Both the position numbers and the translations under genes were made by a program. Shown piece by piece: positions 1,718 through 15,596 of a stretch of 42,058 nt of DNA. Position 1 is the stretch's first letter; each line of letters begins with the position of its first letter. The notes under the pieces are model-generated. The model saw only the letters and a program-made list of their open reading frames with translations. It made no database searches and was not told where the DNA came from. Location: NCBI GenBank assembly GCA_040753795.1, contig JBFMDX010000029.1, positions 1-42,058 of the forward strand. The letters run 5' to 3'. This DNA comes from Thermodesulfobacteriota bacterium. GTDB taxonomy: Bacteria; Desulfobacterota; Desulfobacteria; Desulfobacterales; Desulfosudaceae.

Positions 1718-3181
1718 CTACTTGATGGCGATCAGGGACTGCTGGGCGATTTGTATGAAATCCGACGGAAAAATGCCCATGCGCAATACGCCGTAAGCCG
1801 AGATCAGGATGGCGATGATGATTGCCGGCGGGAAGAGAACCGCTCCCATGGTTCCGGCCGGGGCGGTTTCCGGTTCCTTCATGTACATGGCGATGGTCAC
1901 CCGGAGGTAATAGTAAACCGAGATGACGCTGTTGACGACGCCGATCAGGGCCAGGCCGAGAAACCCTTCCTTGATGGCGGCGGAAAAGATATAGAATTTG
2001 CCCATGAAGCCGGCCGTGGGTGGTATACCGGCCAGGGAAAAGAGGAACAGGCTCATCATCACGGCCGCGACGGGGTTGCGGTATCCGAACCCGGCGAAAT
2101 CCTGGACATTGACCCTTTCCTCGTTCCGGCCGCCGATGACGGTAATAATGGCAAAGGCGCCCAGGTTCATGAAGGTGTAGGCCAGCAGGTAGAATAACAC
2201 GCTGGAAATCCCCATTTCCCGGGCCGCGATAAAGGCGACCATGATATAACCGGCGTGGGCGATGCTGGAGTATGCCAGCATCCGTTTGACGTTGTCCTGA
2301 ACCAAAGCGACCACGTTACCGACGGTCATCGTCAGGACCGCCAGAATCCAGACCAGATCGACCCATTCATTGCGGGCCGACGGCAGGGCTTCCACAAAGA
2401 TGCGGATAAGAGCGGCAAAAGCGGCCGCCTTCGGACCGGCCGACATGAAACCGGTGATGGGGGCCGGGGCGCCCTGGTAAACGTCCGGGGTCCACATGTG
2501 AAAAGGAACCACCGCGATCTTGAATCCGAACCCGATGATCATCAGGACCATGCCGATGATGATGGTGTAATTCTGGAAGCTGTTGCGGACGGTGATATCG
2601 GCCAGGCTTTTCAAGCTGGTGCTGCCGGCGGCGCCGTAGAAGAGGGCGATGCCGTAAAGCAGAAACCCGGTGGCGAACGAGCCCAGCACGAAATATTTCA
2701 GGGCGGCTTCGTTGGAGATCTGCCGGCCGCGGGTGTACCCGGTCAACACATAAAGGCAGATGGACATCAGTTCCAGACCGAGGAAAATCGTGATGAAATC
2801 CGCCCCGCTGACCATGATCATCATGCCGACGGTGGCAAACAGCAGGATGGCGAAGTATTCCCCGTGATGGATGCCTTCTTCCTTGAGATATTTTAAGGAA
2901 ATAAGGATGGTCAGGCCGGTGCAGAGAAGGAATAGCAGCTTGAAAAACCGGGAATAGTTATCTATCACCCAGGTCCCGCTGAAGGAATATTCGGTACCAC
3001 CGGGTGATCCCAGGAGCATTAAGGCGGACAGAATAACGCCGGCCAGGCTTAGGTACCCCATGACTTTTTTCGATTCCCGGGGGGAAAACGCCTGGAGAAG
3101 AAGGATAATCATGGCCGTGGCGGCAATGACGATTTCCGGGTAAATGGCCTGAAAACTGATCTGCGCGATAATTGATTCCAT
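1718..3181 (-). CDS. nuoN: NADH-quinone oxidoreductase subunit N
   Basis: This 487-aa protein, about the normal length for NuoN, is one of the antiporter-like proton-pumping subunits in the membrane arm of complex I. The charged residues of the half-channels are visible: Glu in LGLELMSICLYVL (TM5), Lys in GFGFKIAVVPFHMW (TM7), Lys in SAGPKAAAFAAL (TM8) and Lys in TAGFMGKFYIFSA (TM12). It is the last gene of the nuo operon, 56 bases after nuoM, with a strong terminator directly downstream. Nothing suggests it is inactive. Confidence 0.95.
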   Translation of the reverse strand: MESIIAQISFQAIYPEIVIAATAMIILLLQAFSPRESKKVMGYLSLAGVILSALMLLGSPGGTEYSFSGTWVIDNYSRFFKLLFLLCTGLTILISLKYLKEEGIHHGEYFAILLFATVGMMIMVSGADFITIFLGLELMSICLYVLTGYTRGRQISNEAALKYFVLGSFATGFLLYGIALFYGAAGSTSLKSLADITVRNSFQNYTIIIGMVLMIIGFGFKIAVVPFHMWTPDVYQGAPAPITGFMSAGPKAAAFAALIRIFVEALPSARNEWVDLVWILAVLTMTVGNVVALVQDNVKRMLAYSSIAHAGYIMVAFIAAREMGISSVLFYLLAYTFMNLGAFAIITVIGGRNEERVNVQDFAGFGYRNPVAAVMMSLFLFSLAGIPPTAGFMGKFYIFSAAIKEGFLGLALIGVVNSVISVYYYLRVTIAMYMKEPETAPAGTMGAVLFPPAIIIAILISAYGVLRMGIFPSDFIQIAQQSLIAIK

Positions 3182-3237: not shown

Positions 3238-4773
3238 TTATCTCGATAAATTACAGCCCGCGACGGCCGTTGATACAACCCTGTGCTGATTGACATGCTC
3301 AAGCAGGTGGCCGACGGAAGCATGCATGGTGTTTAAGAACGGCCGGGGACACAAACCGATCCAGAACATGAACACGACGATCGGGAGCATGTATACCCAT
3401 TCTCTGGAAGTCATGTCTTTCAAGCTTTTGTTCTCTTCCTTGGTTATTTCGCCGTAGATCACCCGCTTGTACATCCACAGAAGGTAAACCGCACCCAGGA
3501 CCAATCCGGCGGTGGCAATCAGACCGAGCCACACATTGGCTTTAAAAGCGCCGATCAGGATGAGCAGTTCCCCGATGAATCCGTTCAGGCCGGGAACCCC
3601 CATGGAAGAGAAGGCCGTGATCAGAAACAGCGTCGCGAACCAGGGCATGACCTTGTAGATGCCGCCGTATTCGGAAATCAGCCGGGTATGCCGTCGTTCA
3701 TAAAGCATCCCGACGCAAAGGAACAGGGCGCCGGTGCTCAACCCGTGGTTGATCATCTGAATGAGGCTGCCTTCGACTCCTTCCGTGTTCAGGGCGAACA
3801 TGCCGAGCATGCAATAGCCCAGATGGCTGACGCTGGAGTAGGCCACCAGTTTCTTGATGTCACTCTGGGCGATGGACACCAGGGCGCCGTAAATAATGCC
3901 GATGACGGCCAGGACCATGATCACCGGGACAAAGTCGATGGAAGCATTGGGAAACAGGGGCAGACTGAACCGCAGGAAGCCGTATGTCCCCATCTTCAGG
4001 AGTACGCCGGCCAGGATAACGCTGCCGGCGGTGGGCGCTTCGACGTGGGCGTCCGGCAACCATGTATGGAACGGAAACATGGGCACCTTGATGGCAAAGG
4101 CCAGGAAAAAGGCCATAAAGAGCCAGAACTGGGCCTGAACCGGTATGTTCAGGTCATAGTATTCCAGGATATTGAAGCTGTAATGCCCGGTGGCCTTGAA
4201 GTTCATGAAGTAGAGGGTAAGAATCGCAAGCAGCATGAGGACGCTGCCGCTCATGGTGTAGATGAAAAACTTGACGGCGGCGTAAATCCTCCGTGGTCCG
4301 CCCCAGATGCCGATGATAAAATACATCGGGATCAGCATCACTTCCCAGAACACGTAAAAGAGGAAGAAGTCCAGAGCGCAGAAAACGCCCAGCATGCCGA
4401 TTTCAAGGAAAAGCAGGGAGATCATGTATTCCTTGACCCGCTGGGTCACGGCCGTCCAGGTGGACAGAACGGCCAGGGCGGAGAGGAAGGTGGTCAGCAG
4501 CACCAGCAGCAGGCTGATGCCGTCGATCCCCATGTGATAGCTGATGCCGAAGGCTTCGATCCAGGGGACTTTCTCCACAAACTGCATATTCCAGGTGGTC
4601 TGATCGAAACAGAAATAAAGGGGCAGCGATACCAGGAAGGTGACGACGGTGGTGATGAACGCCAACCACCGGATCAGGGCATGCTTGTCTTTATTGATCA
4701 GAAGGATCCCCACGATACCGGCAAGGGGCAGATACGTAATGGTTGACAGGATCGGAAATTGGATACAGTTCAT
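3238..4773 (-). CDS. nuoM: NADH-quinone oxidoreductase subunit M
   Basis: This 511-aa protein is a proton-pumping membrane subunit of complex I. The motifs are those of NuoM: Glu in [13 protein letters not shown] (TM5), Lys in [19 protein letters not shown] (TM7), Lys in [13 protein letters not shown] (TM8), and Glu in place of Lys in the TM12 segment [14 protein letters not shown]. That Glu is what separates NuoM from the L and N subunits. It starts 6 bases after the preceding gene, so the genes are tightly co-transcribed. Confidence 0.95.
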
Positions 4774-4779
4774 AATATT

Positions 4780-6546
4780 CTACATTACATGTTTAAAAAG
4801 ATAATAACCAATAATCACGACGGTGGCCGACAACATGCAGTATGCGTAACCCCTGATCAGTCCGTTATGGGCTCTTCTCAACTCGCTTGAGAGACCGACA
4901 AAAAACCGGGCGAACCCGTTGACGATCCCGTCGATAAACTTGGAGTCGAATACAAAACCCAGATAATCAGAGGACTTTATAACTCCTCTGGAAAACCAGG
5001 TGTTATAGATGTTGGTCAGGTAATTTTCGTAAATCGTCAGGGGCTTGTTGGCAAACCACATGAAGACCCGGCTGCCTTTCCGGTAGAACCAGTCGGTGTC
5101 CGCGCTGATGGTCGGCTCGGGATCCAGTTTTTTGAGGAGCATGAAGAATCCCAGGCCGGTAAAGAGCAGGATGCCCAGTGCACTGGTGACGTGATCCCCG
5201 GTGTAGGGCTCAAAATGAACCGGGAAGGGCAGCAGGTGATAGAGCGGGCCGGGCAGCACGCCGATGCCGATGCAGAGGAAGGCGGCCATGCCCATGGCGA
5301 TCAGCATGTTCAGCGGCGGTTCCTTGGTGCGGATACCGGAGTCCTTCCCGAAGAACATGTAGTAGGGAAGTTTCAGGCCGGTATGCAGAAACGTTCCGGC
5401 GGACGCCAGGGTCAGCAGCAGGGCCACCGCCGGCCGGTGATCGTGAGCGGCTCCGGAGACGACCATTGACTTGGTTACAAAACCGCTGAACAACGGAAAC
5501 GCGGAAATCGCGAACCCGCCGATCATGTAAAGGGTGAGCGTAATCGGCATGGTTTTGTAAAGTCCGCCCAGTTCGGTGAGCTTGCGTTTGCCGGTCATGT
5601 AAATAACCGAACCCGCGCCCATGAACAGCAGTCCTTTGTACAGAATATGGGCGAAAGCGTGAGAGACGGAACCGTTGAGCGACATGTCGGTGCCGATGCC
5701 GACCCCGGCGACCATGTAGCCCACCTGGCTGATGATGTGATAGGCCAGAAGGCGCCGGCAGTCGTTTTCAAGCACGGCATAGACAACGCCGTACAGGGCC
5801 ATGATCGTTCCCATATAGACCAGCAGCTCGGTTCCCGGAAAAACCCTGACCAGAACATAAACGGCCGTCTTGGTGGTAAAGGCCGACATGAAGACGGAGC
5901 CGGTGACCGTTCCTTCCGGATAGGCGTCCGTCAGCCAGGCATGCAGCGGGGGAACGGCGGCGTTTAAAATAACCCCGACCAGGATCAAATAGAAGGCGAA
6001 GGAGCCGTCCTGGGGAAGAGGCCCGACGGCGATTGATTGTGTCTGAATGGAGTGGATAATGATGCCGCCCAGCAGACAGACACCGCCGAAGATGTGGACC
6101 AGGATGTATCGATAACCGGCCTCGGTAGCCGCTTTTTCACGTTTGGCAAAGATCAGATAGGCGGAGGCGAACGCCATCAGTTCCCAGAAGATAAACAGGG
6201 AAAAGAAATCGCCGGCGAAGGTGACACCCAGCGATCCGGCGATATAAAGGTAGGCCGACACATGCTGACCGGAATCCTTGACATGCAGGGCGTAAACCAT
6301 GCCGATGCAGGACATGATGCTGAAAACCCAGGCAAATACCGTGCTGAGCTTGTCGACTTTCCCGAACAGAAGCTGATTGTCAAGAAAGTTAACGCCCCAG
6401 AAGGATCCCTGCGTCATGGAGTACACGGACAGTACCGCCAGCACGGGAATCGTCAAAAGCCAGATCTGCTGCAGTTTCCCCCGCAGGAAGGGAATGACGC
6501 ACGCCCCCAGAATAAATAATATTGATGGATGAACCCAATCAATCAT
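4780..6546 (-). CDS. NuoL/MrpD-type antiporter-like subunit with C-terminal extension
   Basis: This 588-aa membrane protein belongs to the proton-translocating subunit family (NuoL/MrpD/HyfF group). It has the TM5 Glu (E122 in FWELMAF), the TM8 Lys (K226 in AFTTKTAVYVL) and the TM12 Lys (K359 in FVTKSMVV). The TM7 Lys is replaced by Asn (N195 in ILNAAVPPLHAW). After about residue 470 there is a C-terminal part (WFYRKGSRVFMWFANKP onward) with amphipathic stretches and a final TM, as expected for a lateral-helix-like extension. Its start overlaps the 84-aa gene by 8 bases. Similar proteins are often annotated Na+/H+ antiporter subunit D. Together with the 503-aa protein it appears to take the place of NuoL. 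Confidence 0.88.
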   Translation of the reverse strand: MIDWVHPSILFILGACVIPFLRGKLQQIWLLTIPVLAVLSVYSMTQGSFWGVNFLDNQLLFGKVDKLSTVFAWVFSIMSCIGMVYALHVKDSGQHVSAYLYIAGSLGVTFAGDFFSLFIFWELMAFASAYLIFAKREKAATEAGYRYILVHIFGGVCLLGGIIIHSIQTQSIAVGPLPQDGSFAFYLILVGVILNAAVPPLHAWLTDAYPEGTVTGSVFMSAFTTKTAVYVLVRVFPGTELLVYMGTIMALYGVVYAVLENDCRRLLAYHIISQVGYMVAGVGIGTDMSLNGSVSHAFAHILYKGLLFMGAGSVIYMTGKRKLTELGGLYKTMPITLTLYMIGGFAISAFPLFSGFVTKSMVVSGAAHDHRPAVALLLTLASAGTFLHTGLKLPYYMFFGKDSGIRTKEPPLNMLIAMGMAAFLCIGIGVLPGPLYHLLPFPVHFEPYTGDHVTSALGILLFTGLGFFMLLKKLDPEPTISADTDWFYRKGSRVFMWFANKPLTIYENYLTNIYNTWFSRGVIKSSDYLGFVFDSKFIDGIVNGFARFFVGLSSELRRAHNGLIRGYAYCMLSATVVIIGYYLFKHVM

Positions 6547-6793
6547 AATAATCCTCTTTTTTCATTATACCGCCCTGGTGTCCGATGAACTTGGAAATGA
6601 TGATGATCAGAACGCAGGATATAAAACCGTAGAAGGCGCCCCATCCGGGGATTTTGTCCCAGATGTAGATGGCGTGCTCACGGTGGACAAAGAAATCGGA
6701 GATAAACGTCACCACCAGGGCCACGTAGCCGATTTTCTTCAGCTTTCCCGCATTCTTGGAATCGCCGATAAAGTTGACAATTTTACCAATCAC
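6539..6793 (-). CDS. small two-TM membrane protein inside the nuo operon
   Basis: This 84-aa protein has two predicted TM segments (about 20-36 and 52-67) joined by a polar loop with HREHAIYIWDKIPGW, and a charged tail MKKEDYYD. Its start overlaps the upstream stop by 4 bases (ATGA), and its end overlaps the next start by 8 bases. This is translational coupling on both sides, so it is almost certainly translated. I do not recognise a family. Its place between two antiporter-like subunits suggests an accessory or linker subunit of this complex I variant; that role is inference. Confidence 0.75.
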   Translation of the reverse strand: MIGKIVNFIGDSKNAGKLKKIGYVALVVTFISDFFVHREHAIYIWDKIPGWGAFYGFISCVLIIIISKFIGHQGGIMKKEDYYD

Positions 6794-8301
6794 TTGATGA
6801 CCTCCTTTGCCAGACCCAGGAAATAATCCGGATAAATACCGATGACGATGGACAGAATCGCGGTGATCACCAGGGGGACCACGACCATGGGAATCTCTCT
6901 GGCCTCCGTATGATGTCCACCATCGTGTCCGTGATCATGACCATGATCGTCGTGATCGTGATGAGGTTCTTCGGGAGCCTTTTCGAAAAAGGCCTTGTAG
7001 GTAATGGGCAGAAAGTAGGCCGCGTTGAGAACCGTGCTGACCAGAAGAACGATCAGAATGGGGATCTCCTTCGCCTGGATGGAGCCGAGGGCCAGGTACC
7101 ATTTACTGACGAAGCCGGCCACCGGCGGCACGCCGATCATGCTCAGGGAGGCGATGAAAAAACAGGCCATGGTCCAGGGCATTTTCTTCCCGATTCCGGA
7201 AAGCTGGCTGATTTCCGTCTTATGGGCGCTGGTATACAGGGAACCGGCGCAGAAGAACAGGGTGATTTTTGAGAAAGCGTGGTTGGCGATATGGACAATA
7301 CCGCCGATCATGCTGTAGGGGGTCAGCAGGACCGCTCCTAAAATAACGTAGGACAACTGGCTGATGGTGGAATATGCCAGCCGGGCCTTGAGGTTGTCCT
7401 TGGTCAGGGCGATGATGCTTCCCATCATGATCGTGAATGAAACCACATAGGCGGCGGTAATCCCGAGATCCATCCGGGTCATGAAATCCACGCCGTAGAT
7501 GTGGAAAACAACCCGGAGAACCGAAAACACGCCGACTTTCACGACCGCCACCGCGTGCAGCAGCGAACTGACGGGCGTCGGCGCCACCATGGCGGACGGC
7601 AGCCAGTTATGGAAGGGCATGACGCCGGCTTTGCCGAAACCGAAAACAAAGAAGAAGAAGGTGATGAAGAGCAGGGTCGATCCCTGAACGCCCTGCAGCA
7701 GGCCGCCGCTGACAAAGTCGGTGGTTCCCGTCACCATGTAGATGATGACGATTCCGGAAAGCAGCAGCGTTTTGGACAGGCCCAGCAGATACAGGAAATA
7801 TTTTCTGGCGCCTTCCTGGGCCTCCGGCGTTTCCTTGTGCCCGACCAGGGGCACCGTGGCCAGGCTCAGTATTTCGTAAAAGAAGAACAGGGTGATCAGG
7901 TTAGCCGAGAAGGCCACGCCGATAGTCGCCGAGAGGCTGACCGCGAAACAGGTAAAGTACCGGGTCTGGGCATGCTCATGGTTGCTCCGCATGTAACCGA
8001 CGGAGTAGAAGGTGGTGATGACCCAGAGAAAAGACGAGACGGTCGCGAACAGAAGCCCGAGGGCGTCCACTCTTAATTTCAGTTCGATCCCCTGGTAAAA
8101 CGTGACCAGCGCGAACTCGATCGTCTGCCCGGAAAAGACGACCGGGACCATGGACAGCACGATGCCGAGCTTGATCAGCCCCGCCAGTACCGACCAGAAC
8201 TCCCTCAAGTTGGGACGATCGCCCGTCTTGAAGATCAGAAAGGCCGCGATCAGAGATGAAAGAACCGCCAGAAGAGGTTTGATGGAAACTATTGTCTGCA
8301 C
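6790..8301 (-). CDS. MrpD/NuoL-type antiporter-like subunit with His-rich loop
   Basis: This 503-aa protein is a proton-translocating subunit of the complex I/Mrp family. All key charges are present: E143 (FFYEILSLAT), K224 (GFGKAGVMPFHNWLP), K255 (AVVKVGVFSVL) and K400 (GFVSKWYLALG). It is about 110 residues shorter than a typical NuoL and lacks the long C-terminal lateral helix, so it looks more like MrpD. Before the last TM there is an 18-residue segment (447-464) with nine His and five Asp, a likely metal-binding or pH-sensitive loop. It follows nuoK directly, the position usually held by nuoL. Confidence 0.88.
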   Translation of the reverse strand: MQTIVSIKPLLAVLSSLIAAFLIFKTGDRPNLREFWSVLAGLIKLGIVLSMVPVVFSGQTIEFALVTFYQGIELKLRVDALGLLFATVSSFLWVITTFYSVGYMRSNHEHAQTRYFTCFAVSLSATIGVAFSANLITLFFFYEILSLATVPLVGHKETPEAQEGARKYFLYLLGLSKTLLLSGIVIIYMVTGTTDFVSGGLLQGVQGSTLLFITFFFFVFGFGKAGVMPFHNWLPSAMVAPTPVSSLLHAVAVVKVGVFSVLRVVFHIYGVDFMTRMDLGITAAYVVSFTIMMGSIIALTKDNLKARLAYSTISQLSYVILGAVLLTPYSMIGGIVHIANHAFSKITLFFCAGSLYTSAHKTEISQLSGIGKKMPWTMACFFIASLSMIGVPPVAGFVSKWYLALGSIQAKEIPILIVLLVSTVLNAAYFLPITYKAFFEKAPEEPHHDHDDHGHDHGHDGGHHTEAREIPMVVVPLVITAILSIVIGIYPDYFLGLAKEVIK

Positions 8302-8307
8302 CGTATG

Positions 8308-8610
8308 CTATCCTTTCATCAAATTAATCTCATCGACGTTGACGGTCGATTTGTTTCGGAAAAGGGAGATAATGATGGCCAGCCCGACGGCGGCTTCAGC
8401 GGCGGCAACCGTCATGATCATGAACACGAACACATGCCCGTTCATGTCGTTTAAAAAACTGGAGAAGGCAATGAAGGTCAGGTTGACCGAATTGAGCATC
8501 AGTTCAATGCACATGTAAATGATCAGGGCGTTTTTCTGGGTGAATACGCCCACGGCGCCGATGGAGAAGAGTACCGCCCCTAAAATCAAGTAGTAGTGTA
8601 ATGAGATCAT
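8308..8610 (-). CDS. nuoK: NADH-quinone oxidoreductase subunit K
   Basis: This 100-aa, three-TM protein has the normal NuoK length. The two conserved intramembrane glutamates of the E-channel are visible, in [13 protein letters not shown] and [11 protein letters not shown]. It sits between nuoJ and the first antiporter-like subunit, 6 bases from the latter. Role: part of the proton path linking the quinone site to the pumping subunits. Confidence 0.95.
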
Positions 8611-8643: not shown

Positions 8644-9147
8644 TCAGTCATCAATCCTCCTTTTGGCAAGAATTACCGCCCCCACGATTGCCGCCAGCAG
8701 TAAAATCGAGGCAATCTCAAAAGGCAGCAGAAAATCGGTAAACAGCACCAGGGCGACTCCCCGGACGGTCCCGAAAAGGTCTTCCCCGCCCGCCCGGACC
8801 AGTTCCGGATCCACTGACGCCAGGTCGGCGACCAGGATGAACAGGAATCCGACCACCAGGATACCGCCCAGCTGCGCGAGAACGCGGCTTCCCATCGCCC
8901 GGCCTTCCTTTTCCTGAACGTTCAGCAGCATGATGACGAACAGGAACAGGACCATGATGGCACCGGCGTAGACAATGATCTGGAGGGCGGCGATCAGGTG
9001 GGCGTTAAGCAGCACGTAAATCCCGGCCAGGCAGAACATGGTGAAGATGAGGTTCATGGCAGCCGATACGGGTTTCTTGCTGGTCACCATCAGCAGGGCG
9101 GACACTACCGCGCCGAAGGAAAACAGGATAAACATCAATAATTGCAT
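8644..9147 (-). CDS. nuoJ: NADH-quinone oxidoreductase subunit J
   Basis: This 167-aa protein has about five TM segments, typical of NuoJ. The conserved part YAGAIMVLFLFVIMLLNV (the TM3 pi-bulge region) is present. Its start overlaps the end of nuoI by 13 bases. It forms part of the central membrane hydrophilic axis of complex I together with NuoK, NuoA and NuoH. Confidence 0.95.
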   Translation of the reverse strand: MQLLMFILFSFGAVVSALLMVTSKKPVSAAMNLIFTMFCLAGIYVLLNAHLIAALQIIVYAGAIMVLFLFVIMLLNVQEKEGRAMGSRVLAQLGGILVVGFLFILVADLASVDPELVRAGGEDLFGTVRGVALVLFTDFLLPFEIASILLLAAIVGAVILAKRRIDD

Positions 9148-9755
9148 TTTGAATATATCCTTCTTACGTATTCTAACCGTTCTCTGAGGTCTTTTTCAGG
9201 CCTTAACAGGGATTCTTTTGAGAAAATCATTTCGGCGCGGTTGTAGGCGGCCAGGTTTTCATATTCCCTACTCATGACGATGGCTTCCTTGGGGCAGACT
9301 TCCTCACAGTAACCGCAGTAAACGCAGCGGGTCATGTCGAGGGTGAACTGCAAGGGGAATCGGTCGCCGTTTTCCTTTTCACGGGCGACGATGGTGATGG
9401 CGCGTCCCGGACAGATTTTCTCGCACAGGCCGCAGGCCACGCATTTTTCGCTTCCGTTTTCCTGGGCGACCAGGACCGGTCTTCCCCGGTAGGCATCGAA
9501 CATCACCCGTTTTTCCTCGGGGTAGTAAATGGTGGGAATGGATCGTTTTTTCCCGGCCGGCGGCACCACAAAGCCGATCAGGTTGACGACCAGATGCCTG
9601 GTGGTGATGAAAAGCCCTCTGATCACTTCAAATATGTAGAGCTTTTCCCATAAGGTGAGTTCCAGGTTTCGACGAACTTTTTTAATCTTTTGGGGCTCAA
9701 TCGGCATTGGAGAAATCCCGGTATTGTATTGTAAATTGTTGTTCATATCCGCCAT
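9135..9755 (-). CDS. nuoI: NADH-quinone oxidoreductase subunit I (2x[4Fe-4S])
   Basis: This 206-aa ferredoxin-like subunit carries clusters N6a and N6b in the peripheral arm. Two CxxCxxCxxxCP motifs are present: C105/C108/C111/C115 and C144/C147/C150/C154. The N-terminus is about 30-40 residues longer than the minimal family form, then gives the amphipathic WEKLYIFEVIRGLFITTRH helix that lies on the membrane. It passes electrons to NuoB. It is the entry point for any electron-input module, which matters here because nuoEFG are absent from the cluster. Confidence 0.95.
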   Translation of the reverse strand: MADMNNNLQYNTGISPMPIEPQKIKKVRRNLELTLWEKLYIFEVIRGLFITTRHLVVNLIGFVVPPAGKKRSIPTIYYPEEKRVMFDAYRGRPVLVAQENGSEKCVACGLCEKICPGRAITIVAREKENGDRFPLQFTLDMTRCVYCGYCEEVCPKEAIVMSREYENLAAYNRAEMIFSKESLLRPEKDLRERLEYVRRIYSKCNY

Positions 9756-9763
9756 GGCTATGC

Positions 9764-10915
9764 CTACAGCATGAAAAGGCCGGTGATAAAAATATTGATC
9801 AGGGAAATCGGTAAAATCATTTTCCAGCCCAGTCTCATGACCTGGTCGTACCGGAACCGCGGCAGGGTCCAGCGGATCGTCATCTGGAGCCAGATAAAGA
9901 AGATAATCTTGGCCAGGAAGACGCCCAAATTGACGACCATGGCCAGCAGAGTGGATACGGCCAGCGCGGTGGCGGGTGAACCCAGACTGTCATGGATCAT
10001 GGCCAGCAGATTGGATGCGGCCTGTCCGACCGGGCTGAACAATGAAACCAGGGCGGTGTCGGAAACGAACGGGATGTGCCAGGCGCCGAAGAACAGTGTG
10101 GTGACAATGGCGCTGATGGTGACGATCTCGACGAATTCACCCATCCAGAACATGACGAACTTCATGCCGCTGTATTCGGTGAAGTACCCCGCCACCAGTT
10201 CCGATTCAGCCTCCGGCATGTCGAAGGGGATGCGCTTGTTCTCGGCGATGGCGCAGGTGAAAAAGAGGAGGAACCCCACCGGCTGCAAAAAGATGCCCCA
10301 GCGGAAAAAATCCGCCTGAGCCGCGCCGATTTCCGTCAGCTGCAGGGTGCCGTAAACCATGATGACGCCGATGATGGTAAATCCCATGGCGACTTCATAG
10401 GACAGCATCTGGGCCGAGGCCCGCATGCCGCCCAAAAACGACCAGTTGTTGTTGGAAGACCAGCCGGCCAGAACGGCGCCGAAGGGAGCCAGGGAGGCAA
10501 AGGCGAAGACAAACAGGATGCCCACGTCCAGGTCGGCTATGACCAGGTTCACCTTGTGGCCGAACAGCTCATACTGGCCGCCGAAGGGAATGACCGCGAA
10601 GGTGACCAGGGCGCAGGTCAAACTGATGAACGGGGCCAGGGTATGGAACAGCTTGTTGGCGCCGTCGGGGATAAAGTCTTCCTTGACCATGACCTTGAGG
10701 GCATCGGCAATGGGATGAAACAGGCCGATGATCCGGAAGCCCAGTATATCGGCGCGGTTGGCGCCCACCCGGTCCTGCATGACGGCGCTCTGCTTTCTTT
10801 CCACCCATCCGAGAATGGGCGCGAAGAATCCCATGTTGATCCCGAAAACGATCAGTATCTTGACAACGGTTTCGATCAGATCTGCTATCATATTACCTGT
10901 CGCATTCTCCGCCAA
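9764..10915 (-). CDS. nuoH: NADH-quinone oxidoreductase subunit H
   Basis: This 383-aa, eight-TM subunit helps form the quinone chamber and the link to the proton channel. Typical motifs are GWVERKQSAVMQDRVGANR near the start and NKRIPFDMPEAESELVAGY in the acidic loop region. Its start overlaps the end of nuoD by 23 bases; an alternative in-frame ATG lies eight codons later (MIADLIETV). Order and length are normal for a complex I operon. Confidence 0.95.
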   Translation of the reverse strand: MAENATGNMIADLIETVVKILIVFGINMGFFAPILGWVERKQSAVMQDRVGANRADILGFRIIGLFHPIADALKVMVKEDFIPDGANKLFHTLAPFISLTCALVTFAVIPFGGQYELFGHKVNLVIADLDVGILFVFAFASLAPFGAVLAGWSSNNNWSFLGGMRASAQMLSYEVAMGFTIIGVIMVYGTLQLTEIGAAQADFFRWGIFLQPVGFLLFFTCAIAENKRIPFDMPEAESELVAGYFTEYSGMKFVMFWMGEFVEIVTISAIVTTLFFGAWHIPFVSDTALVSLFSPVGQAASNLLAMIHDSLGSPATALAVSTLLAMVVNLGVFLAKIIFFIWLQMTIRWTLPRFRYDQVMRLGWKMILPISLINIFITGLFML

Positions 10916-12083
10916 TCATGTTAATAAGGTCGAACGTGGGAACGATATCCGCCACAAACCCTCCCTTGACCATACGGGGCATGGCTGCCGTCAGGGCAAA
11001 GCTCGGGGGCCTGACCCTGCACTTGTAGGGCTTGCCGGTTCCATCACTGACCAGATAAAAACCCAGTTCCCCGTTGGCCGCTTCGATGGGGAAATAGATT
11101 TCACCGGCCGGAGGCCGGAATCCTTCCATCACCGTCTTGAAATGAAATATCAGGGAGGCGATATCGCTGTAGACGCCTTCTTTGGGCTGCCGCCTGTATT
11201 CGGGCATGTTCAGATTGACGGGGCCCGTCGGGATTTGAGCCAGGGCCTGCTCGACAATCCGCATGCTCTGGTTGATTTCTTCCATCCGGATCAGGTAGCG
11301 GTCAAAATTATCGCCCACTTCCCCCACTGGAATTTCAAAGTCAATCCGGTCATATGTCAGATAGGGGTGGGCTTTGCGGACATCATAGGCGACGCCGCTG
11401 GCTCTCAGGCAGGGGCCGGTAAAGCCATAGGCGATGGCCTCATCCGCCGGCATGGTGCCGGTGTTCCGGGTGCGGTCGATAAAGATCCGGTTCTTGGTCA
11501 ACAGCTTGTTGACGTCGTCCCAGAACTTCCGGCATCCCGCGAAGGCGGCTTTTGTTTTTTCCGCGAAGCCTTCGGGCAGGTCGTTTTTCAGCCCGCCGAT
11601 CCGGATGTAGTTGGTGGTGACCCGGGCGCCGCAGGTGCTTTCGATCAGGTCCCAGATCAGTTCCCGCGCTTCGACGAAGTAGAGGAAGGCGGTCATGGCC
11701 CCCAGTTCCATGGCGGCCGCGGCGACATTGGTGAAGTGGTCGGCGATCCGGGAAAGCTCACACATGATGACCCGGATGTACCGGCACCGTTCAGTGGTCT
11801 CGATCCCGGCCAGCTTTTCCACCGCCAGGGCGTAGCCTACATTGTTAATAAGCGGCGAGACGTAGTTCAACCGGTCGGTGTACGGCATGACCTGTTCCCA
11901 GGTGCCGTTTTCGCACATCTTTTCAAACCCGCGGTGGAGGTACCCGATACCGACGTCCAGGTCGACAATTTTTTCTCCGTCAAGGGTGGCGAGAAATTTC
12001 ACCGTTCCATGGGTGACCGGATGGGAAGGCCCCATGTTGATGACCATGTTTTCGGTATACAGATCTTTGGTTGTCTGAGTCAT
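10893..12083 (-). CDS. nuoD: NADH-quinone oxidoreductase subunit D (49-kDa type)
   Basis: This 396-aa subunit is related to the [NiFe]-hydrogenase large subunit and forms the quinone site with NuoB. The quinone-loop motif is present as GPSHPVTHG, where GPQHPSTHG is more usual, and the conserved Tyr is in LNYVSPLINN. NuoC and NuoD are separate genes here, unlike the fused NuoCD of E. coli. There are 27 bases between nuoC and nuoD. Confidence 0.95.
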   Translation of the reverse strand: MTQTTKDLYTENMVINMGPSHPVTHGTVKFLATLDGEKIVDLDVGIGYLHRGFEKMCENGTWEQVMPYTDRLNYVSPLINNVGYALAVEKLAGIETTERCRYIRVIMCELSRIADHFTNVAAAAMELGAMTAFLYFVEARELIWDLIESTCGARVTTNYIRIGGLKNDLPEGFAEKTKAAFAGCRKFWDDVNKLLTKNRIFIDRTRNTGTMPADEAIAYGFTGPCLRASGVAYDVRKAHPYLTYDRIDFEIPVGEVGDNFDRYLIRMEEINQSMRIVEQALAQIPTGPVNLNMPEYRRQPKEGVYSDIASLIFHFKTVMEGFRPPAGEIYFPIEAANGELGFYLVSDGTGKPYKCRVRPPSFALTAAMPRMVKGGFVADIVPTFDLINMIGGECDR

Positions 12084-12110: not shown

Positions 12111-12593
12111 TTAGTTGACAGGCCCGATCAGGGGCTGCCGCTTCTTTACCGGATAATCCTTTCGCAGGGGATGCCCTTCAAACTCCTCGTACAGCAGAAT
12201 CCGCTTCAGATTGGGATGTCCCGTGAAGCGGATGCCGTACATGTCGTAGGCTTCTCTTTCAAACCAGTCGGCGCTGTTCCAGAGAGAGGTGGCGGAGTCA
12301 ATGGCGCCGTCCGCTTCGGATACACGGGCCTTGATCCGGATCCGGGTGTTGTATCTGAGGGAATAGAGGTGATAAACGACCTCAAATCTCGGTTCCCGGC
12401 CCATATAGTCCACCGCCGTGATATCCATCATGAAATTATACAGAAGCTCCGGATCGTCCCGCAAAAAGGAGAAAATCTTGAGTATCTCTTCCTTTTTTAT
12501 AATTGCCGTATCATCATTACGAAAGGAGTGGGTTTCGACAACGGCATCCGGAAATTTTTCCGTCAGTTTCTTCAGCGTCACACTGGTTTTCAT
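12111..12593 (-). CDS. nuoC: NADH-quinone oxidoreductase subunit C (30-kDa type)
   Basis: This 160-aa peripheral-arm subunit has no cofactor. The family signature is at the C-terminus: RILLYEEFEGHPLRKDYPV, preceded by WFEREAYDMYGIRFTGHPNL. It is a stand-alone gene between nuoB and nuoD. If the canonical NuoEFG module is truly missing, NuoC and NuoI would have to dock the alternative input protein. Confidence 0.95.
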   Translation of the reverse strand: MKTSVTLKKLTEKFPDAVVETHSFRNDDTAIIKKEEILKIFSFLRDDPELLYNFMMDITAVDYMGREPRFEVVYHLYSLRYNTRIRIKARVSEADGAIDSATSLWNSADWFEREAYDMYGIRFTGHPNLKRILLYEEFEGHPLRKDYPVKKRQPLIGPVN

Positions 12594-12626: not shown

Positions 12627-13157
12627 TTACGCGCCAGTGACCGGTGCGGCGCCTCTTGGCCAGTCGGTCCATCTTTCCTTGGCGATTTTCTGCTGTAACT
12701 TGATCAGCCCGTCGATGACCATTTCCGGCCGCGGCGGGCAACCGGGGATATAAACGTCCACCGGAATGAGGGTATCGATGCCCTGGACGGTGGCGTAATT
12801 ATCGTAAAACCCGCCGGAAACCGCGCAGGCGCCAAAGGCGATGACCCATTTGGGCTCGGTCATCTGATCATAAACCTTGACCAGAATCGGGGCCTGTTTG
12901 TGGCTGATGGTGCCCACCACCAGCAGCAGGTCGGCCTGCCTCGGCGTAAACCGGGGCAGGGCGGCGCCGAACCGGTCCAGGTCGTACTGGGGACCGCCCA
13001 GGGACATGTACTCCATGGCGCAACAGGCCGTCGCAAAGGGGTAAACAAACAGGGAGTATTTCCTGGCCCAGCCGATGACGGCATCCAGCTTGGTCATGAT
13101 CACCGAATCCTTCAGGAGTCCGGCCAGTCCTTCATCCGCGTTTCCGATTATTCCCAT
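12627..13157 (-). CDS. nuoB: NADH-quinone oxidoreductase subunit B (cluster N2)
   Basis: This 176-aa subunit carries the terminal [4Fe-4S] cluster N2 that reduces quinone. Ligand motifs are visible: tandem cysteines in TACCAMEYMSLGG, Cys in GACAVSGG and Cys in IPGCPPRPE. Its start overlaps the end of nuoA by 10 bases. Length and motifs are normal. Confidence 0.95.
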   Translation of the reverse strand: MGIIGNADEGLAGLLKDSVIMTKLDAVIGWARKYSLFVYPFATACCAMEYMSLGGPQYDLDRFGAALPRFTPRQADLLLVVGTISHKQAPILVKVYDQMTEPKWVIAFGACAVSGGFYDNYATVQGIDTLIPVDVYIPGCPPRPEMVIDGLIKLQQKIAKERWTDWPRGAAPVTGA

Positions 13158-13501
13158 TCCAAGGCACCTCTTTTCCAGACATAAATCAGGCCCACGGCCA
13201 GAATTCCCAGGAACATCATCATCTCAATAAAGCCGAACAGGCCCAGTTCTTTGAAGACCACCGCCCAGGGATACAGAAAAACCGCTTCAATATCAAAAAT
13301 GACGAAAAACAGGGCCACCAGGTAAAACTTGACGGAGAATCGCTGCTTGGGGGACACCAGGGGGGCTTCACCGCATTCGAAAGGCTGCATCTTTTCCGGG
13401 AACTTCTTTTTCGGGCCGATGAAGGTGGCCACGCATAAAATGCCCACCGACGTGGCCGCGGCCAGCAGTAGCATCAGTAAGACAGGTATGTATTCGCTCA
13501 T
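13148..13501 (-). CDS. nuoA: NADH-quinone oxidoreductase subunit A
   Basis: This 117-aa, three-TM protein is the first gene of the nuoA-N run. Family motifs are PFECGEAPLVSPKQRFSVKFYL and FVIFDIEAVFLYPWA. It begins 133 bases after the fused NuoF/GltD-like gene, and a promoter-like sequence lies in that gap. It contributes to the mobile loops around the quinone channel. Confidence 0.95.
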   Translation of the reverse strand: MSEYIPVLLMLLLAAATSVGILCVATFIGPKKKFPEKMQPFECGEAPLVSPKQRFSVKFYLVALFFVIFDIEAVFLYPWAVVFKELGLFGFIEMMMFLGILAVGLIYVWKRGALEWE

Positions 13502-13597
13502 GAGTCGTCTCTTTCCGTTTCCTTAATTACACCTATTTTGCATTGTCCTGTTCATGCTCAGCGGGCATCCGTCCCGCCAAAATAAAAAAAGACAATT

Positions 13598-13626
13598 TTT
13601 TATCGTTTTGTTTCCCCTCTTGTCAA
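13598..13626 (-). promoter_or_regulatory. candidate sigma-70 promoter ahead of nuoA
   Basis: On the minus strand a perfect -35 TTGACA (13626-13621) is followed after 17 bases by ATAAAA (13603-13598). With an 18-base spacer the -10 reads TAAAAA. The -10 is poor, so the site is uncertain. It would let nuoA-N be transcribed separately from the FAD oxidoreductase upstream. Confidence 0.4.
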
Positions 13627-13634
13627 TGAAATTC

Positions 13635-15596
13635 TTATTTTTCCAGCGCCACCATGCCCATCTGATAACACCGCAGGCAGCGGGAGGCTTCTTCAATCGC
13701 CTGCCGCAGATCATACCCGGTTTCCACTTCGGCGAAGCTGGTCACTCTCCGATCCAGAGGGATGACCGGCATGGACACCCGTTTAAGGGTTTCTTTGAAG
13801 GCGGGTTTTTCGTTTTTGCCGTCAACGCCCAGGGTCTTGAAGACCCGGTCCAGTTTTTCATCGGTGGATACGGTGACCGCGCCGTCGGTAAGGAACTGGT
13901 GGATACTTTCCGCGGCCCGGCGGGCGTTGCCGCAGGCGTCGACAATGGTCAGCGGACCGTTGAACACGTCCCCGGCGGTGAAGATATAAGGAACATGGGT
14001 CTGAAAGGTCTGCGGGTCCGCGGTAATGGTACCCCAGCGGGTGGACTGGACGTCGTTCACGCCGCTTAAAACGGACAGGTCGCAGTCCTGGCCGATGGCC
14101 TGGATGATGATGTCCGCCGGGATGACAAACTCCGATCCTTCCACCGGCACCGGGCGTCTCCGGCCGCTGGCATCGGGTTCACCCAGTTCCATTTTCAGGC
14201 ATTCCAGGCCGGTCACCTTTCCGTTCTGGGAAACGATCTTTTTGGGAGCGGTGAGAAAAATGTATTTGACGCCCTCGATTTCCGAGTCGTGTACTTCATG
14301 GGGATCGGCCGGCAGTTCTTTCTTGGTCCGGCGATAGACGATGGTCACCTCCTTGGCGCCGTTTCTGATGGGGGATCGGCAGCAGTCCATGGCCACGTTG
14401 CCGCCGCCGACAACCAGCACTCTTTTGCCTTTCATATCCAGACACCGGGTGGTGACGCAGTCTTTCAGATAATCAATTCCCTTCAAAAAGCCGTCGAGGT
14501 TGTTATCCTCTCCTTCCACTCCGATCTTTTTGGAAAGATGGGCGCCGGTGGCGACCAGAAAAGCCTTGTACCCTTCCTTTTGGAGTTGGGGAATGGTGAG
14601 GTCTTTGCCGATGGGGGTGTTGTAGCGGATTTCCACGCCCATCTTTTCGACAAAGGCGGTTTCTCTCTGGAGAACCTCCTTGGGAACCCGGTATTCGGGG
14701 ATGCCCACGCCGACCATGCCGCCCGGAACCGGCAGGGCTTCAAAAACCGTCACCGGGTATCCTTTGATGGCCAGATAATAAGCGGCCGAGAGGCCGGCGG
14801 GGCCGGCGCCGATGACCGCCACCTTGTCCGTTTTGGCGTGCCGGTTGGGATTCTCCGGCTGGGCCAGGGGACGCAGATCCTCATAGTCCCAGGCGAACCG
14901 TTTGAGCTTGCAGATGGAGATCGCCTCGTCGATATGGGACCGGCGGCAGTTCTTTTCACAGGGATGAAAGCAGGCCCGGCCCAGCGAGGCGGCCATGGGG
15001 CTGGCCTCGCGGGTGACCTGCAGGGCATCCAGGACGCGGTTTTCGCTGATATGCTCGACATAGGCGGGGATGTTCATTCCGGCCGGACAGGCGGAGTAGC
15101 AGGGGGCCGTCCATTTGGCCGCATAGCGGGCGCTTGTCTGCGCCGGCTTCTTTCCGGCCGCGGCTTTTTCGAAGTCGTTCCGGAAGTGTTCGATGGCATG
15201 CAGGATCGGAACCGGACCGGTTTTGCCGATGAAGCATTTGGATGTTTCCGATATGTATTGCCCCAGATTCCGTAACCTGGTCAGGTCCTCCGCCTGTCCT
15301 TTCCCCTCGGCGAATTTTTTCAGGGTGTTTTCCATGATCGCGGTGCCGATCCGGCAGGGGAAACATTTTCCGCAGGAGGTCTTATGCACTTCCTGCATGT
15401 AGCGCAGGGACATATCGACGATGTCGACGGAGTCCTTCAGCAGGATGATACCGGCCCAGCCCATGAAACCGGCGATGGTGTTTTCCTTGTCAAAGTCCGC
15501 CGGCAGCGTGACGGAAGGCACGTCCTTCCACTTATCGGGTTCAAGTCCCCGGCTGTCGACGATTTCATTATTCCATGAAGAAAATAACAGTTTCAT
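13635..15596 (-). CDS. NuoF iron-sulfur domain fused to GltD-like FAD/NAD(P)H oxidoreductase
   Basis: This 653-aa protein has three parts. Residues ~40-145 match the C-terminal [4Fe-4S] domain of NuoF (C75, C78, C81 in SCGKCFPCRIG, and C121), but the NuoF FMN/NADH domain is absent. Residues ~160-230 carry the GltD/DPYD-type cluster cysteines (C166, C170, C209, C213, C217). Residues ~257-620 form the two-nucleotide-binding oxidoreductase part, with FAD motif VIGAGPAGLS and NAD(P) motif VVGGGNVAMD, then VYRRTKKELP, which in GltD-like enzymes is linked to NADPH binding. The tail holds SRCLRC. An in-frame TAG lies shortly upstream of the ATG, so the protein is not truncated by annotation. Position suggests it feeds electrons into the complex I next door; that is inference. 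Confidence 0.85.
   Translation of the reverse strand: MKLLFSSWNNEIVDSRGLEPDKWKDVPSVTLPADFDKENTIAGFMGWAGIILLKDSVDIVDMSLRYMQEVHKTSCGKCFPCRIGTAIMENTLKKFAEGKGQAEDLTRLRNLGQYISETSKCFIGKTGPVPILHAIEHFRNDFEKAAAGKKPAQTSARYAAKWTAPCYSACPAGMNIPAYVEHISENRVLDALQVTREASPMAASLGRACFHPCEKNCRRSHIDEAISICKLKRFAWDYEDLRPLAQPENPNRHAKTDKVAVIGAGPAGLSAAYYLAIKGYPVTVFEALPVPGGMVGVGIPEYRVPKEVLQRETAFVEKMGVEIRYNTPIGKDLTIPQLQKEGYKAFLVATGAHLSKKIGVEGEDNNLDGFLKGIDYLKDCVTTRCLDMKGKRVLVVGGGNVAMDCCRSPIRNGAKEVTIVYRRTKKELPADPHEVHDSEIEGVKYIFLTAPKKIVSQNGKVTGLECLKMELGEPDASGRRRPVPVEGSEFVIPADIIIQAIGQDCDLSVLSGVNDVQSTRWGTITADPQTFQTHVPYIFTAGDVFNGPLTIVDACGNARRAAESIHQFLTDGAVTVSTDEKLDRVFKTLGVDGKNEKPAFKETLKRVSMPVIPLDRRVTSFAEVETGYDLRQAIEEASRCLRCYQMGMVALEK

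What the first reader, a model, noticed from the sequence alone, without database searches (positions are those of the whole stretch)
13635..15596. Fused NuoF-cluster/GltD oxidoreductase as a replacement electron-input module
No nuoE, nuoF or nuoG lies in the cluster. Directly upstream is a protein that keeps only the [4Fe-4S] part of NuoF and joins it to a GltD-like FAD/NAD(P)H domain with its own cluster motifs. The YRRT segment after the NAD(P) motif suggests NADPH. This may give complex I an NADPH- or ferredoxin-linked input, or allow reverse electron flow.
Basis: partly seen in the sequence, partly recalled or inferred. Interest (0 to 1): 0.68.

Follow-up and report, generated by a model that had tools for sequence, protein, structure and literature searches.

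The report
NADPH input module for complex I
This bacterium's respiratory complex I lacks its usual NADH-oxidising part and carries beside it a fusion protein that looks built to feed in electrons from NADPH, and perhaps formate, an arrangement that recurs in many related bacteria and may show what drives such complexes.

Summary
In detail: window 13635-15596 (-) encodes a 653-aa protein joining the C-terminal [4Fe-4S] domain of NuoF (no FMN domain) to a GltD/NfnB-type FAD-NAD(P)H module, 133 bp upstream of nuoABCDHIJK, two MrpD-type antiporter genes and nuoMN; nuoE, nuoF and nuoG are absent from the cluster. The proposed role is largely supported but needs correcting. The protein resembles Geobacter SfrB. 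In a sample of the phylum, 62 of 112 such fusions lie in nuo clusters, 60 of them directly after nuoD, and 47 directly before NuoG or a formate dehydrogenase (FdhA) with a NuoG-like front end. The closest relative (70% identical) has fusion-nuoG-nuoA, tightly packed. The window cluster lacks that nuoG; the best candidate partner is an orphan selenocysteine FdhA on another contig (9 of its 14 nearest sampled relatives have the fusion directly upstream). NuoD phylogeny puts the window's complex I in another lineage than the other fusion-bearing ones. NADPH use is consistent but untested; ferredoxin use has no direct support; a stand-alone NuoE-NuoF-HoxU diaphorase remains a rival. I judge it a new variant of a known kind (complex I with a swapped input module).

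The parts
13635..15596 (-). fusion protein, 653 aa: NuoF-type [4Fe-4S] domain + GltD/NfnB-type FAD-NAD(P)H module (SfrB-like)
15165..15416 (-). NADH_4Fe-4S domain (residues 61-144), N3-type cysteines C75, C78, C81, C121
14880..15140 (-). Fer4_20 domain (residues 153-239), cysteines C166, C170, C209, C213, C217
13935..14825 (-). Pyr_redox_2: FAD and NAD(P)H domains (residues 258-554); R303 = Nfn R201; Y421-R422-R423
13668..13679 (-). C-terminal CLRC (C640, C643), the displaced first cysteine pair of the Fe-S domain
   Evidence: residues 606-643 align to residues 8-45 of Nfn chain 5jca_L
13502..13634 (-). 133-bp gap where the closest relative has nuoG; no NuoG remnant and no promoter-like or terminator-like site found
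13148..13501 (-). nuoA
12627..13157 (-). nuoB
12111..12593 (-). nuoC
10893..12083 (-). nuoD
9764..10915 (-). nuoH (383 aa, with an insert relative to L014 NuoH)
9135..9755 (-). nuoI (two CxxCxxCxxxCP motifs)
8644..9147 (-). nuoJ
8308..8610 (-). nuoK
6790..8301 (-). MrpD-family antiporter subunit, 503 aa (PRK08375-type)
6539..6793 (-). 84-aa ORF without Pfam match, also in the closest relative
4780..6546 (-). MrpD-family antiporter subunit, 588 aa (PRK12668-type), in the place of nuoL
3238..4773 (-). nuoM
1718..3181 (-). nuoN

Best explanation
The gene encodes the NADPH-oxidising (or NADP+-reducing) electron-input subunit of this organism's only complex I, standing in for NuoE and NuoF. Inferred path: NADPH -> FAD (GltD-like half) -> the [4Fe-4S] clusters of the Fer4_20 domain -> the N3-type [4Fe-4S] cluster of the NuoF-like half -> a NuoG-type Fe-S subunit -> NuoI, NuoB -> menaquinone, with proton pumping, and possibly in reverse. 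The NuoF-like half is the docking piece that in complex I binds NuoG. NuoG is absent from this cluster, so a NuoG-type partner most likely acts in trans; the best candidate is the orphan selenocysteine FdhA on contig C24. Shown: the domains, the conserved cysteines, the synteny in relatives and the missing nuoEFG. Inferred: NADPH as substrate, docking to complex I, the partner in trans, menaquinone and the direction of flow.
For: 62 of 112 sampled fusions lie in same-strand nuo runs, 60 of the 62 directly after nuoD and 47 directly before NuoG/FdhA. In the closest relative L010 (70% identity) the fusion ends 4 or 13 bp before nuoG (by start codon), nuoG overlaps nuoA by 4 bp, and the same nuo and antiporter genes follow. 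All four N3 cysteines are kept in 62 of 62 nuo-linked rows against 22 of 43 rows linked only to NuoG/FdhA. The N-terminal domain has the NuoF fold; the rest has the NfnABC/StnC/NfnB/GltD fold, whose solved members are titled as NADP(H) enzymes. One complex I NuoB and one full-length fusion were found in the genome. The C24 Sec-FdhA is of a family often linked to the fusion: of 14 hits at 62% identity or more, 9 have the fusion directly upstream, full-length in 7 and cut by a contig end in 2. G026 repeats the pattern: nuoABCD-fusion-nuoHIJKLMN without NuoG in the cluster, and a related FdhA (54%) elsewhere. tRNA-Sec is present.
Against: No NuoG lies beside the fusion here; there are no biochemical or expression data. 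40 of 112 relatives pair with NuoG/FdhA away from nuo and 10 of 112 with other genes, so the fusion can work without complex I. In the fusion tree the window protein falls nearer the non-nuo (SfrB-like) side, though a grouping with the main nuo clade is not rejected (AU p 0.27). Of the 14 nearest relatives of the C24 FdhA, 5 have no verified fusion upstream: 3 have another GltD-type frame broken by an in-frame TGA, 2 nothing recognised. A free-standing NuoE-NuoF-HoxU diaphorase exists. YRR is invariant in the family, so it is weak evidence for NADPH over NADH.
Confidence: 0.64

Rival explanations
1. The fusion is a soluble SfrAB-like enzyme (for example formate:NADP+ oxidoreductase with the Sec-FdhA) and its place beside nuoA is only co-regulation; complex I gets its electrons otherwise.
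For: 40 of 112 relatives pair with NuoG/FdhA away from nuo; the window fusion sits nearer that side of the tree; the fusion is separated from nuoA by 133 bp and has no NuoG beside it; an SfrB-like protein beside an [FeFe]-hydrogenase has been proposed as its NADPH-oxidising partner (passages of PMC3543383).
Against: The closest relative has fusion-nuoG-nuoA in one tight run; in 60 of 62 sampled nuo-linked cases the fusion follows nuoD; no promoter-like or terminator-like consensus site lies in the gap.
Confidence: 0.19
2. Complex I is driven by NADH through the free-standing NuoE-NuoF-HoxU diaphorase on contig C3.
For: The three genes are present and adjacent; the HoxU-like protein carries NuoG-type cluster domains.
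Against: A like set is kept in the closest relative's genome, whose complex I has its own fusion and NuoG, so it does not look like a substitute; it is not near nuo.
Confidence: 0.1
3. Complex I works like the 11-subunit enzyme and takes electrons directly from ferredoxin at NuoI.
For: Forms without NuoEFG are known, with ferredoxin or flavodoxin among the proposed donors (passages of PMC11238625); nuoEFG is absent here.
Against: It leaves the conserved fusion, with its NuoF-type domain, unexplained; I found nothing in the sequence that points to ferredoxin.
Confidence: 0.06

Closest known systems
[quoted passage not shown]
   Same: GltD-like subunit partnered with a NuoG-like SfrA (passages of PMC7483475). 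On the tree branch that holds the named Geobacteraceae locus L015, fusions are followed by a NuoG-like protein, e.g. L231: 673 aa + 855 aa.
   Different: SfrAB is soluble and separate from nuo; here the fusion is in a complex I cluster without its NuoG-like partner. The true SfrB sequence was not compared; that it carries the NuoF-type domain is recalled and inferred.
Nuo-Bfu (complex I with BfuABC in place of NuoEFG)
   Same: A complex I whose NADH module is replaced by another input module (passages of PMC9304861).
   Different: BfuB is a full NuoF-type subunit; the present fusion has no FMN domain and adds a GltD-like module.
StnABC / NfnABC bifurcating transhydrogenases (8oh5, 9bov, 9n5u)
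   Same: Best structural matches of the GltD half (Z 42-45); the CLxC pair is likewise at the end of the module.
   Different: There the GltD module is joined to a NuoG-like part and works with separate NuoE- and NuoF-like subunits; here it is joined to NuoF's cluster domain alone.
fdhF2 next to nfnB in Seep-SRB1g
   Same: A formate dehydrogenase gene beside a GltD/NfnB-type gene in sulfate reducers (passage of PMC10553843).
   Different: Read there as an NfnAB-like bifurcating enzyme; no link to complex I is described in the passages seen, and whether that nfnB is this fusion was not tested.
Canonical 14-subunit complex I
   Same: NuoA, B, C, D, H, I, J, K, M and N present; NuoD groups with complexes that carry nuoE.
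   Different: NuoE, NuoF and NuoG missing; two MrpD-family proteins in place of NuoL.

Membership tests
NuoF (NADH-binding subunit of complex I) | FMN/NADH-binding domain (Complex1_51K, PF01512) | tested here: not met
   No Complex1_51K hit; nuoF_fam matches only positions 294-408 of 410
NuoF (NADH-binding subunit of complex I) | C-terminal [4Fe-4S] (N3) domain with four cysteines | tested here: met
   NADH_4Fe-4S E 4e-24; C75, C78, C81, C121; NuoF fold Z 18.5
GltD/NfnB FAD-NAD(P)H family | Fer4_20 plus Pyr_redox_2 with FAD and NAD(P) motifs and the Fe-S cysteines | tested here: met
   first cysteine pair moved to the C-terminus
GltD/NfnB FAD-NAD(P)H family | oxidises NADPH | not testable with these tools
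   YRR and GGGN-type residues conserved in 116 of 116 fusions; activity needs an assay
Nfn (bifurcating transhydrogenase) | NfnA-type partner subunit | not tested
   none in the window cluster; the genome was not searched for it
SfrB-like NADPH oxidoreductase subunit | NuoF-type cluster domain + GltD module, next to a NuoG-like partner gene | tested here: inconclusive
   Domain build met; partner gene absent in the window, present in L010; G. sulfurreducens SfrB itself not compared
Nuo-Bfu complex I | BfuB (NuoF-type with FMN domain) in the nuo cluster | tested here: not met
   no other NuoF-type gene in the window cluster, and the fusion has no Complex1_51K
Complex I (NADH:quinone oxidoreductase) | Q-module NuoBCDI and membrane subunits NuoA, H, J, K, M, N | tested here: met
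Complex I (NADH:quinone oxidoreductase) | NuoL | tested here: not met
   4780-6546 scores 151-166 bits with NuoL models (cut-offs 407.5 and 556) but 758 with antiporter model PRK12668 (cut-off 564); 6790-8301 likewise fits PRK08375 (723 bits, cut-off 663)
Complex I (NADH:quinone oxidoreductase) | NADH module NuoEFG in the cluster | tested here: not met
   absent from the window; elsewhere a diaphorase, a NuoE-NuoF in an HdrA/Flox-like cluster, and Sec-FdhAs
FdhA (C24, proposed partner) | NuoG-like front end and Sec active-site motif | tested here: met
   Fer2_4, NADH-G_4Fe-4S_3, Molybdop_Fe4S4; CARL-U-HSSTVAGL across an in-frame TGA; tRNA-Sec in genome

The most novel reading that the evidence does not exclude
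A widespread, unnamed class of complex I in which NuoE/F is replaced by an SfrB-type NADPH dehydrogenase and NuoG by a selenocysteine formate dehydrogenase, making one proton-pumping enzyme that links formate/CO2, NADPH and menaquinone and could run backwards to drive CO2 or NADP+ reduction with membrane energy. The window organism is a second, separately assembled case, on a conventional-type backbone with two MrpD-type subunits in place of NuoL and with the formate dehydrogenase supplied from another locus.
Probability: 0.33. Interest if true: 0.82.

Novelty: new variant of a known kind. Interest (0 to 1): 0.63.

Why it matters
What donates electrons to complexes I without NuoEFG is stated as open in print: PMC11238625 reports that no common donor protein was found for the 11-subunit form, PMC12361115 counts 415 species lacking EF or EFG, and PMC12142623 suggests some unknown electron-donating oxidoreductase for a Desulfurivibrio complex I; passages only were read. 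Here a concrete, conserved candidate sits in the nuo cluster of many genomes and can be tested directly. It would also make sense energetically: with the potentials listed in PMC9304861 (E' NADPH -380 and NADH -280 mV; E0' formate -420 and menaquinone -74 mV), NADPH or formate gives roughly 0.6-0.7 eV per electron pair to menaquinone against about 0.4 eV for NADH, which is 3.4-4.6 against 2.3-2.7 protons at a pmf of 150-180 mV (my arithmetic and assumed pmf).

Tried and rejected
Chance neighbourhood was rejected: the fusion-nuo linkage recurs in many families and in a relative 70% identical. A NuoG remnant in the 133-bp gap: none found. A complete nuoEFG elsewhere: not found. Whether the window fusion descends from the main nuo-linked clade: the fusion trees cannot decide (a 42-row set with 39 non-nuo rows, starred 95, holds it in the large tree; no such set and AU p 0.27 in the reduced tree), whereas the NuoD tree rejects one clade of all fusion-bearing complexes (AU p 1.7e-5; I chose that test after seeing the NuoD hits, the gene order and the tree). 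Electron bifurcation at the fusion's FAD: R303 equals the Nfn arginine noted in PMC7483475, but I saw no NfnA-like gene in the cluster, and PMC9304861 predicts that the FAD of the GltD-type subunit of one such enzyme is not the bifurcation site; not pursued. The FdhA tree held almost only fusion-linked rows and could not show a preference; searches replaced it. On checking, 12 of 14 fusion-linked neighbours of the C24 FdhA family became 9 of 14: in L316-L318 the upstream frame is a GltD-type protein broken by an in-frame TGA, not shown to be the fusion; and the protein that I had called NuoL is of an MrpD family. For these mends I lowered the best explanation from 0.66 to 0.64 and the novel case from 0.35 to 0.33. 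In the listings, opening lines of abstracts and passages that I saw, searches gave no paper that describes an SfrB-type or FdhA input module in a nuo cluster; the library holds open-licence papers only, and PMC3119410, a 2011 paper that I recall as a review of sulfate-reducer energy metabolism, is not held.
Full report
WHAT IS THERE. The ORF at 13635-15596 on the minus strand encodes 653 residues. Residues 61-144 are the NADH_4Fe-4S domain that ends NuoF, 153-239 a Fer4_20 domain and 258-554 an FAD/NAD(P)H domain; the FMN domain of NuoF is missing. Modelled alone, the first 160 residues have the fold of the NuoF C-terminal domain (best 8e9h_F, Z 18.5, rmsd 3.3, 124 aligned; several NuoF-like chains tie). 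The whole model (mean pLDDT 83.8) matches, over residues 162-649, NfnABC 9bov_A (Z 45.4, rmsd 2.4, 468 aligned); then StnC 8oh5_C (Z 44.0) and, over 162-578, GltD 2vdc_G and NfnB-type chains (Z 37-38). In NfnB the sequence RCLQC precedes the rest of the Fe-S domain; here the matching stretch is at the C-terminus (residues 606-643 align to 8-45 of 5jca_L, and 164-570 to 50-471), so the domain is circularly permuted. C166, C170, C209, C213 and C217 are invariant in 116 of 116 fusions compared, C640 and C643 in 115 with one gap.

THE CLUSTER. Downstream, same strand, come nuoA, B, C, D, H, I, J, K, two MrpD-family antiporter subunits (503 and 588 aa) with an 84-aa ORF between them, nuoM and nuoN. 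No nuoE, F or G. The protein in the nuoL position scores far better with an antiporter-D model (758 bits, cut-off 564) than with NuoL models (151-166 bits). The window is the whole contig C29 of a 4.75-Mb, 99.8% complete assembly. The 133-bp gap between fusion and nuoA holds no NuoG remnant and no promoter-like or terminator-like consensus site.

THE REST OF THE GENOME. One complex I NuoB was found (a second, 39% identical NuoB-like protein lies with NuoD-, NuoM- and NuoH-like proteins on C15) and one full-length fusion. NADH_4Fe-4S occurs in three places: the fusion, C3 and C6. C3 holds a free-standing NuoE-NuoF-HoxU-like set; C6 a NuoE-NuoF beside proteins that I read as HdrA- and Flox-like. 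NuoG-like proteins: two selenocysteine FdhAs, on C24 and C11, the 211-aa HoxU-like protein, and a weaker match in the HdrA-like protein. One tRNA-Sec scores above the gathering score (75.1 bits against 47); seven other hits lie below it.

RELATIVES. The scan of named genomes (best 80 kept) gave nine relatives matched from residue 32 or earlier to 643 or later in one gene, L010-L018; other hits from about residue 34 join matches in neighbouring NuoF and GltD genes. L010 (70% identical) has fusion-nuoG-nuoABCDHIJK-MrpD-small ORF-588-aa antiporter-nuoMN: nuoG starts 4 or 13 bp after the fusion (by start codon) and overlaps nuoA by 4 bp. L011, L014 and L018 have nuoABCD-fusion-FdhA(Sec)-nuoH; L013 FdhA-fusion; L015 and L016 fusion + a NuoG-like piece; L012 no such partner; L017 is a 1020-aa protein with a NuoF in front. 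In the phylum search (395 genomes, E <= 1e-165) 233 had a match; the list of matches was cut. From the listed rows I took 112 short fusions (open frame up to about 745 aa; 108 genomes), leaving out the window itself, one C-terminal fragment (G371:C258), one row of 829 aa (G059) and the class of about 1000-1080 aa. Of these 112, 62 lie in a same-strand run with nuo genes, 40 only beside NuoG/FdhA and 10 with neither; among the last, an ETF-type neighbourhood (L170) and a corrinoid-methyltransferase-type one (L225) were identified. Of the 62, 60 directly follow nuoD: 24 are followed by a full NuoG/FdhA frame, 23 by an FdhA front half (ending at a TGA or a contig end), 8 by nuoH and 5 by a contig end. 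Of the 8, six have FdhA upstream of nuoA and two, L204 and L205, show no NuoG. Comparing the lists by eye, 30 of 147 genomes with a NuoD match have the fusion directly beside nuoD.

RESIDUES. The comparison used 116 fusions: 109 of the 112 (three fragments under 560 aa dropped), the window and six named loci. C75, C78 and C121 are kept in 116 of 116. C81 is kept in 62 of 62 nuo-linked rows (59 sampled, window, L010, L014) and 11 of 11 'other' rows but in 22 of 43 NuoG/FdhA-only rows (Fisher p 1.6e-10 for 62 of 62 against 22 of 43, not corrected for kinship). R303, equivalent to the Nfn arginine discussed in PMC7483475 (passages; position by alignment), and Y421-R422-R423 are invariant.

THE PARTNER. 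Of 53 nuo-linked NuoG/FdhA rows (four of them from named loci; two of all 91 rows of that tree are copies), 28 carry an in-frame TGA in the FdhA active-site motif and 25 do not; of these 25, 8 have Cys there and 17 another residue or a gap. L010's NuoG has a gap there. The window genome showed no counterpart of that NuoG; its best match is the C24 Sec-FdhA (45% over residues 18-426). A search with the N-terminal half of C24 FdhA in 198 genomes gave 44 matches in 42 genomes at E <= 1e-110, the window's own included. Of the 14 others at 62% identity or more, 9 have the fusion's own C-terminal part directly upstream (L311-L315, L319-L322); 7 of these are full-length fusions listed (one, in G184, about 0.9 kb away) and 2 are cut by contig ends; 3 (L316-L318) have another GltD-type frame, broken by an in-frame TGA; 2 have nothing recognised. 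Of all 29 neighbourhoods returned besides its own, 17 have the fusion upstream, 3 the other GltD-type frame, one nuoD, and 8 neither; three of the 8 are the FdhA-nuoABCD-fusion arrangement (L182, L188, L209). In the window genome neither FdhA has a fusion beside it. G026 looks alike: nuoABCD-fusion-nuoHIJKLMN without NuoG in the cluster and a related FdhA elsewhere. That the single fusion works with a Sec-FdhA in trans is therefore an inference from family habit, not an observation.

HISTORY. In a NuoD tree of 82 rows, window and L010 fall among complexes of the conventional kind (8-row set, 100 starred), where 5 of the 6 other members show nuoE or nuoF right after nuoD; of all 22 comparison complexes L281-L302, 16 do, 3 have nuoH and 3 nothing recognised there. 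Holding all fusion-bearing complexes together is rejected (AU p 1.7e-5). The fusion trees place window and L010 nearer the SfrB-like side, but not firmly. With the different gene order (fusion before nuoA), the module seems to have joined two complex I backbones, by separate recruitment or by transfer between them.

HOW IT WORKS. Most likely NADPH reduces the FAD, electrons pass through the Fer4_20 clusters to the N3-type cluster and then, through a NuoG-type subunit, into NuoI, NuoB and menaquinone. The first steps follow from the family (NfnB, StnC, GltD), the docking from NuoF, the last from complex I; none was measured. If FdhA is the NuoG-type subunit, formate becomes a second donor or product. 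The diaphorase on C3 is the main alternative source within complex I's usual scheme, but a like NuoE-NuoF-HoxU set is kept in L010's genome, whose complex I has its own fusion and NuoG.

WHAT IS KNOWN. Replacement of NuoEFG is known: Nuo-Bfu in Geobacter and others (PMC9304861, passages), and forms without it whose donor is unknown (PMC11238625, PMC12361115, PMC12142623, passages). SfrAB pairs a GltD-like SfrB with a NuoG-like SfrA (PMC7483475, passages); an SfrB-like protein beside an [FeFe]-hydrogenase was noted in Pelobacter (PMC3543383, passages), and fdhF2 beside nfnB in Seep-SRB1g (PMC10553843, passage). Other papers seen in passages (PMC7117926, PMC7894505, PMC6129605, PMC5109826, PMC7382037, PMC8808070) did not describe this arrangement in those passages. 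I call it a new variant of a known kind.

LIMITS.

Noticed in passing
window 4780-8301: In place of one NuoL there are two MrpD-family antiporter subunits (503 aa PRK08375-type with E143, K167, K305, K400 at conserved charged positions; 588 aa PRK12668-type) and an 84-aa ORF. L010 has the same set; the 21 sampled fusion-bearing clusters that show both nuoK and nuoN have three antiporter-like genes, not four.
   Followed up: partly
window 9764-10915: NuoH has an insert of some tens of residues after the motif WHIPF, relative to L014 NuoH.
   Followed up: no
window 15759-17399: A carboxyltransferase (MmdA-like) gene lies upstream on the same strand, 162 bp from the fusion start.
   Followed up: no
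L264, L265, L278, L279: The genome has further large GltD fusions: two of about 1480 aa with extra FAD and ferredoxin domains, one with a nitroreductase domain (822 aa) and one with an N-terminal FeS/ferredoxin part (695 aa).
   Followed up: no
rows with open frames of about 1000-1080 aa; L017: A second fusion class in the phylum matches the query from about residue 28 to 644 inside frames of about 1000 aa; L017, a Chloroflexi locus of that size, joins a NuoF to the GltD module.
   Followed up: no
L170, L171, L225: Relatives of the fusion sit in ETF alpha/beta clusters (with a CCG-domain iron-sulfur protein in L170) and in a cluster with MtrH, URO-D and RACo proteins, so the module seems to serve other redox partners too.
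   Followed up: partly
L316, L317, L318: Upstream of FdhA lies a GltD-type frame interrupted by an in-frame TGA at the same place in three genomes; possibly selenocysteine or a frame break.
   Followed up: no
L266 (G000:C15:58000-71000): A cluster with NuoB-, NuoD-, NuoM- and NuoH-like proteins of another kind (HycG/HycE-like by my reading), another possible home for the orphan Sec-FdhAs.
   Followed up: no
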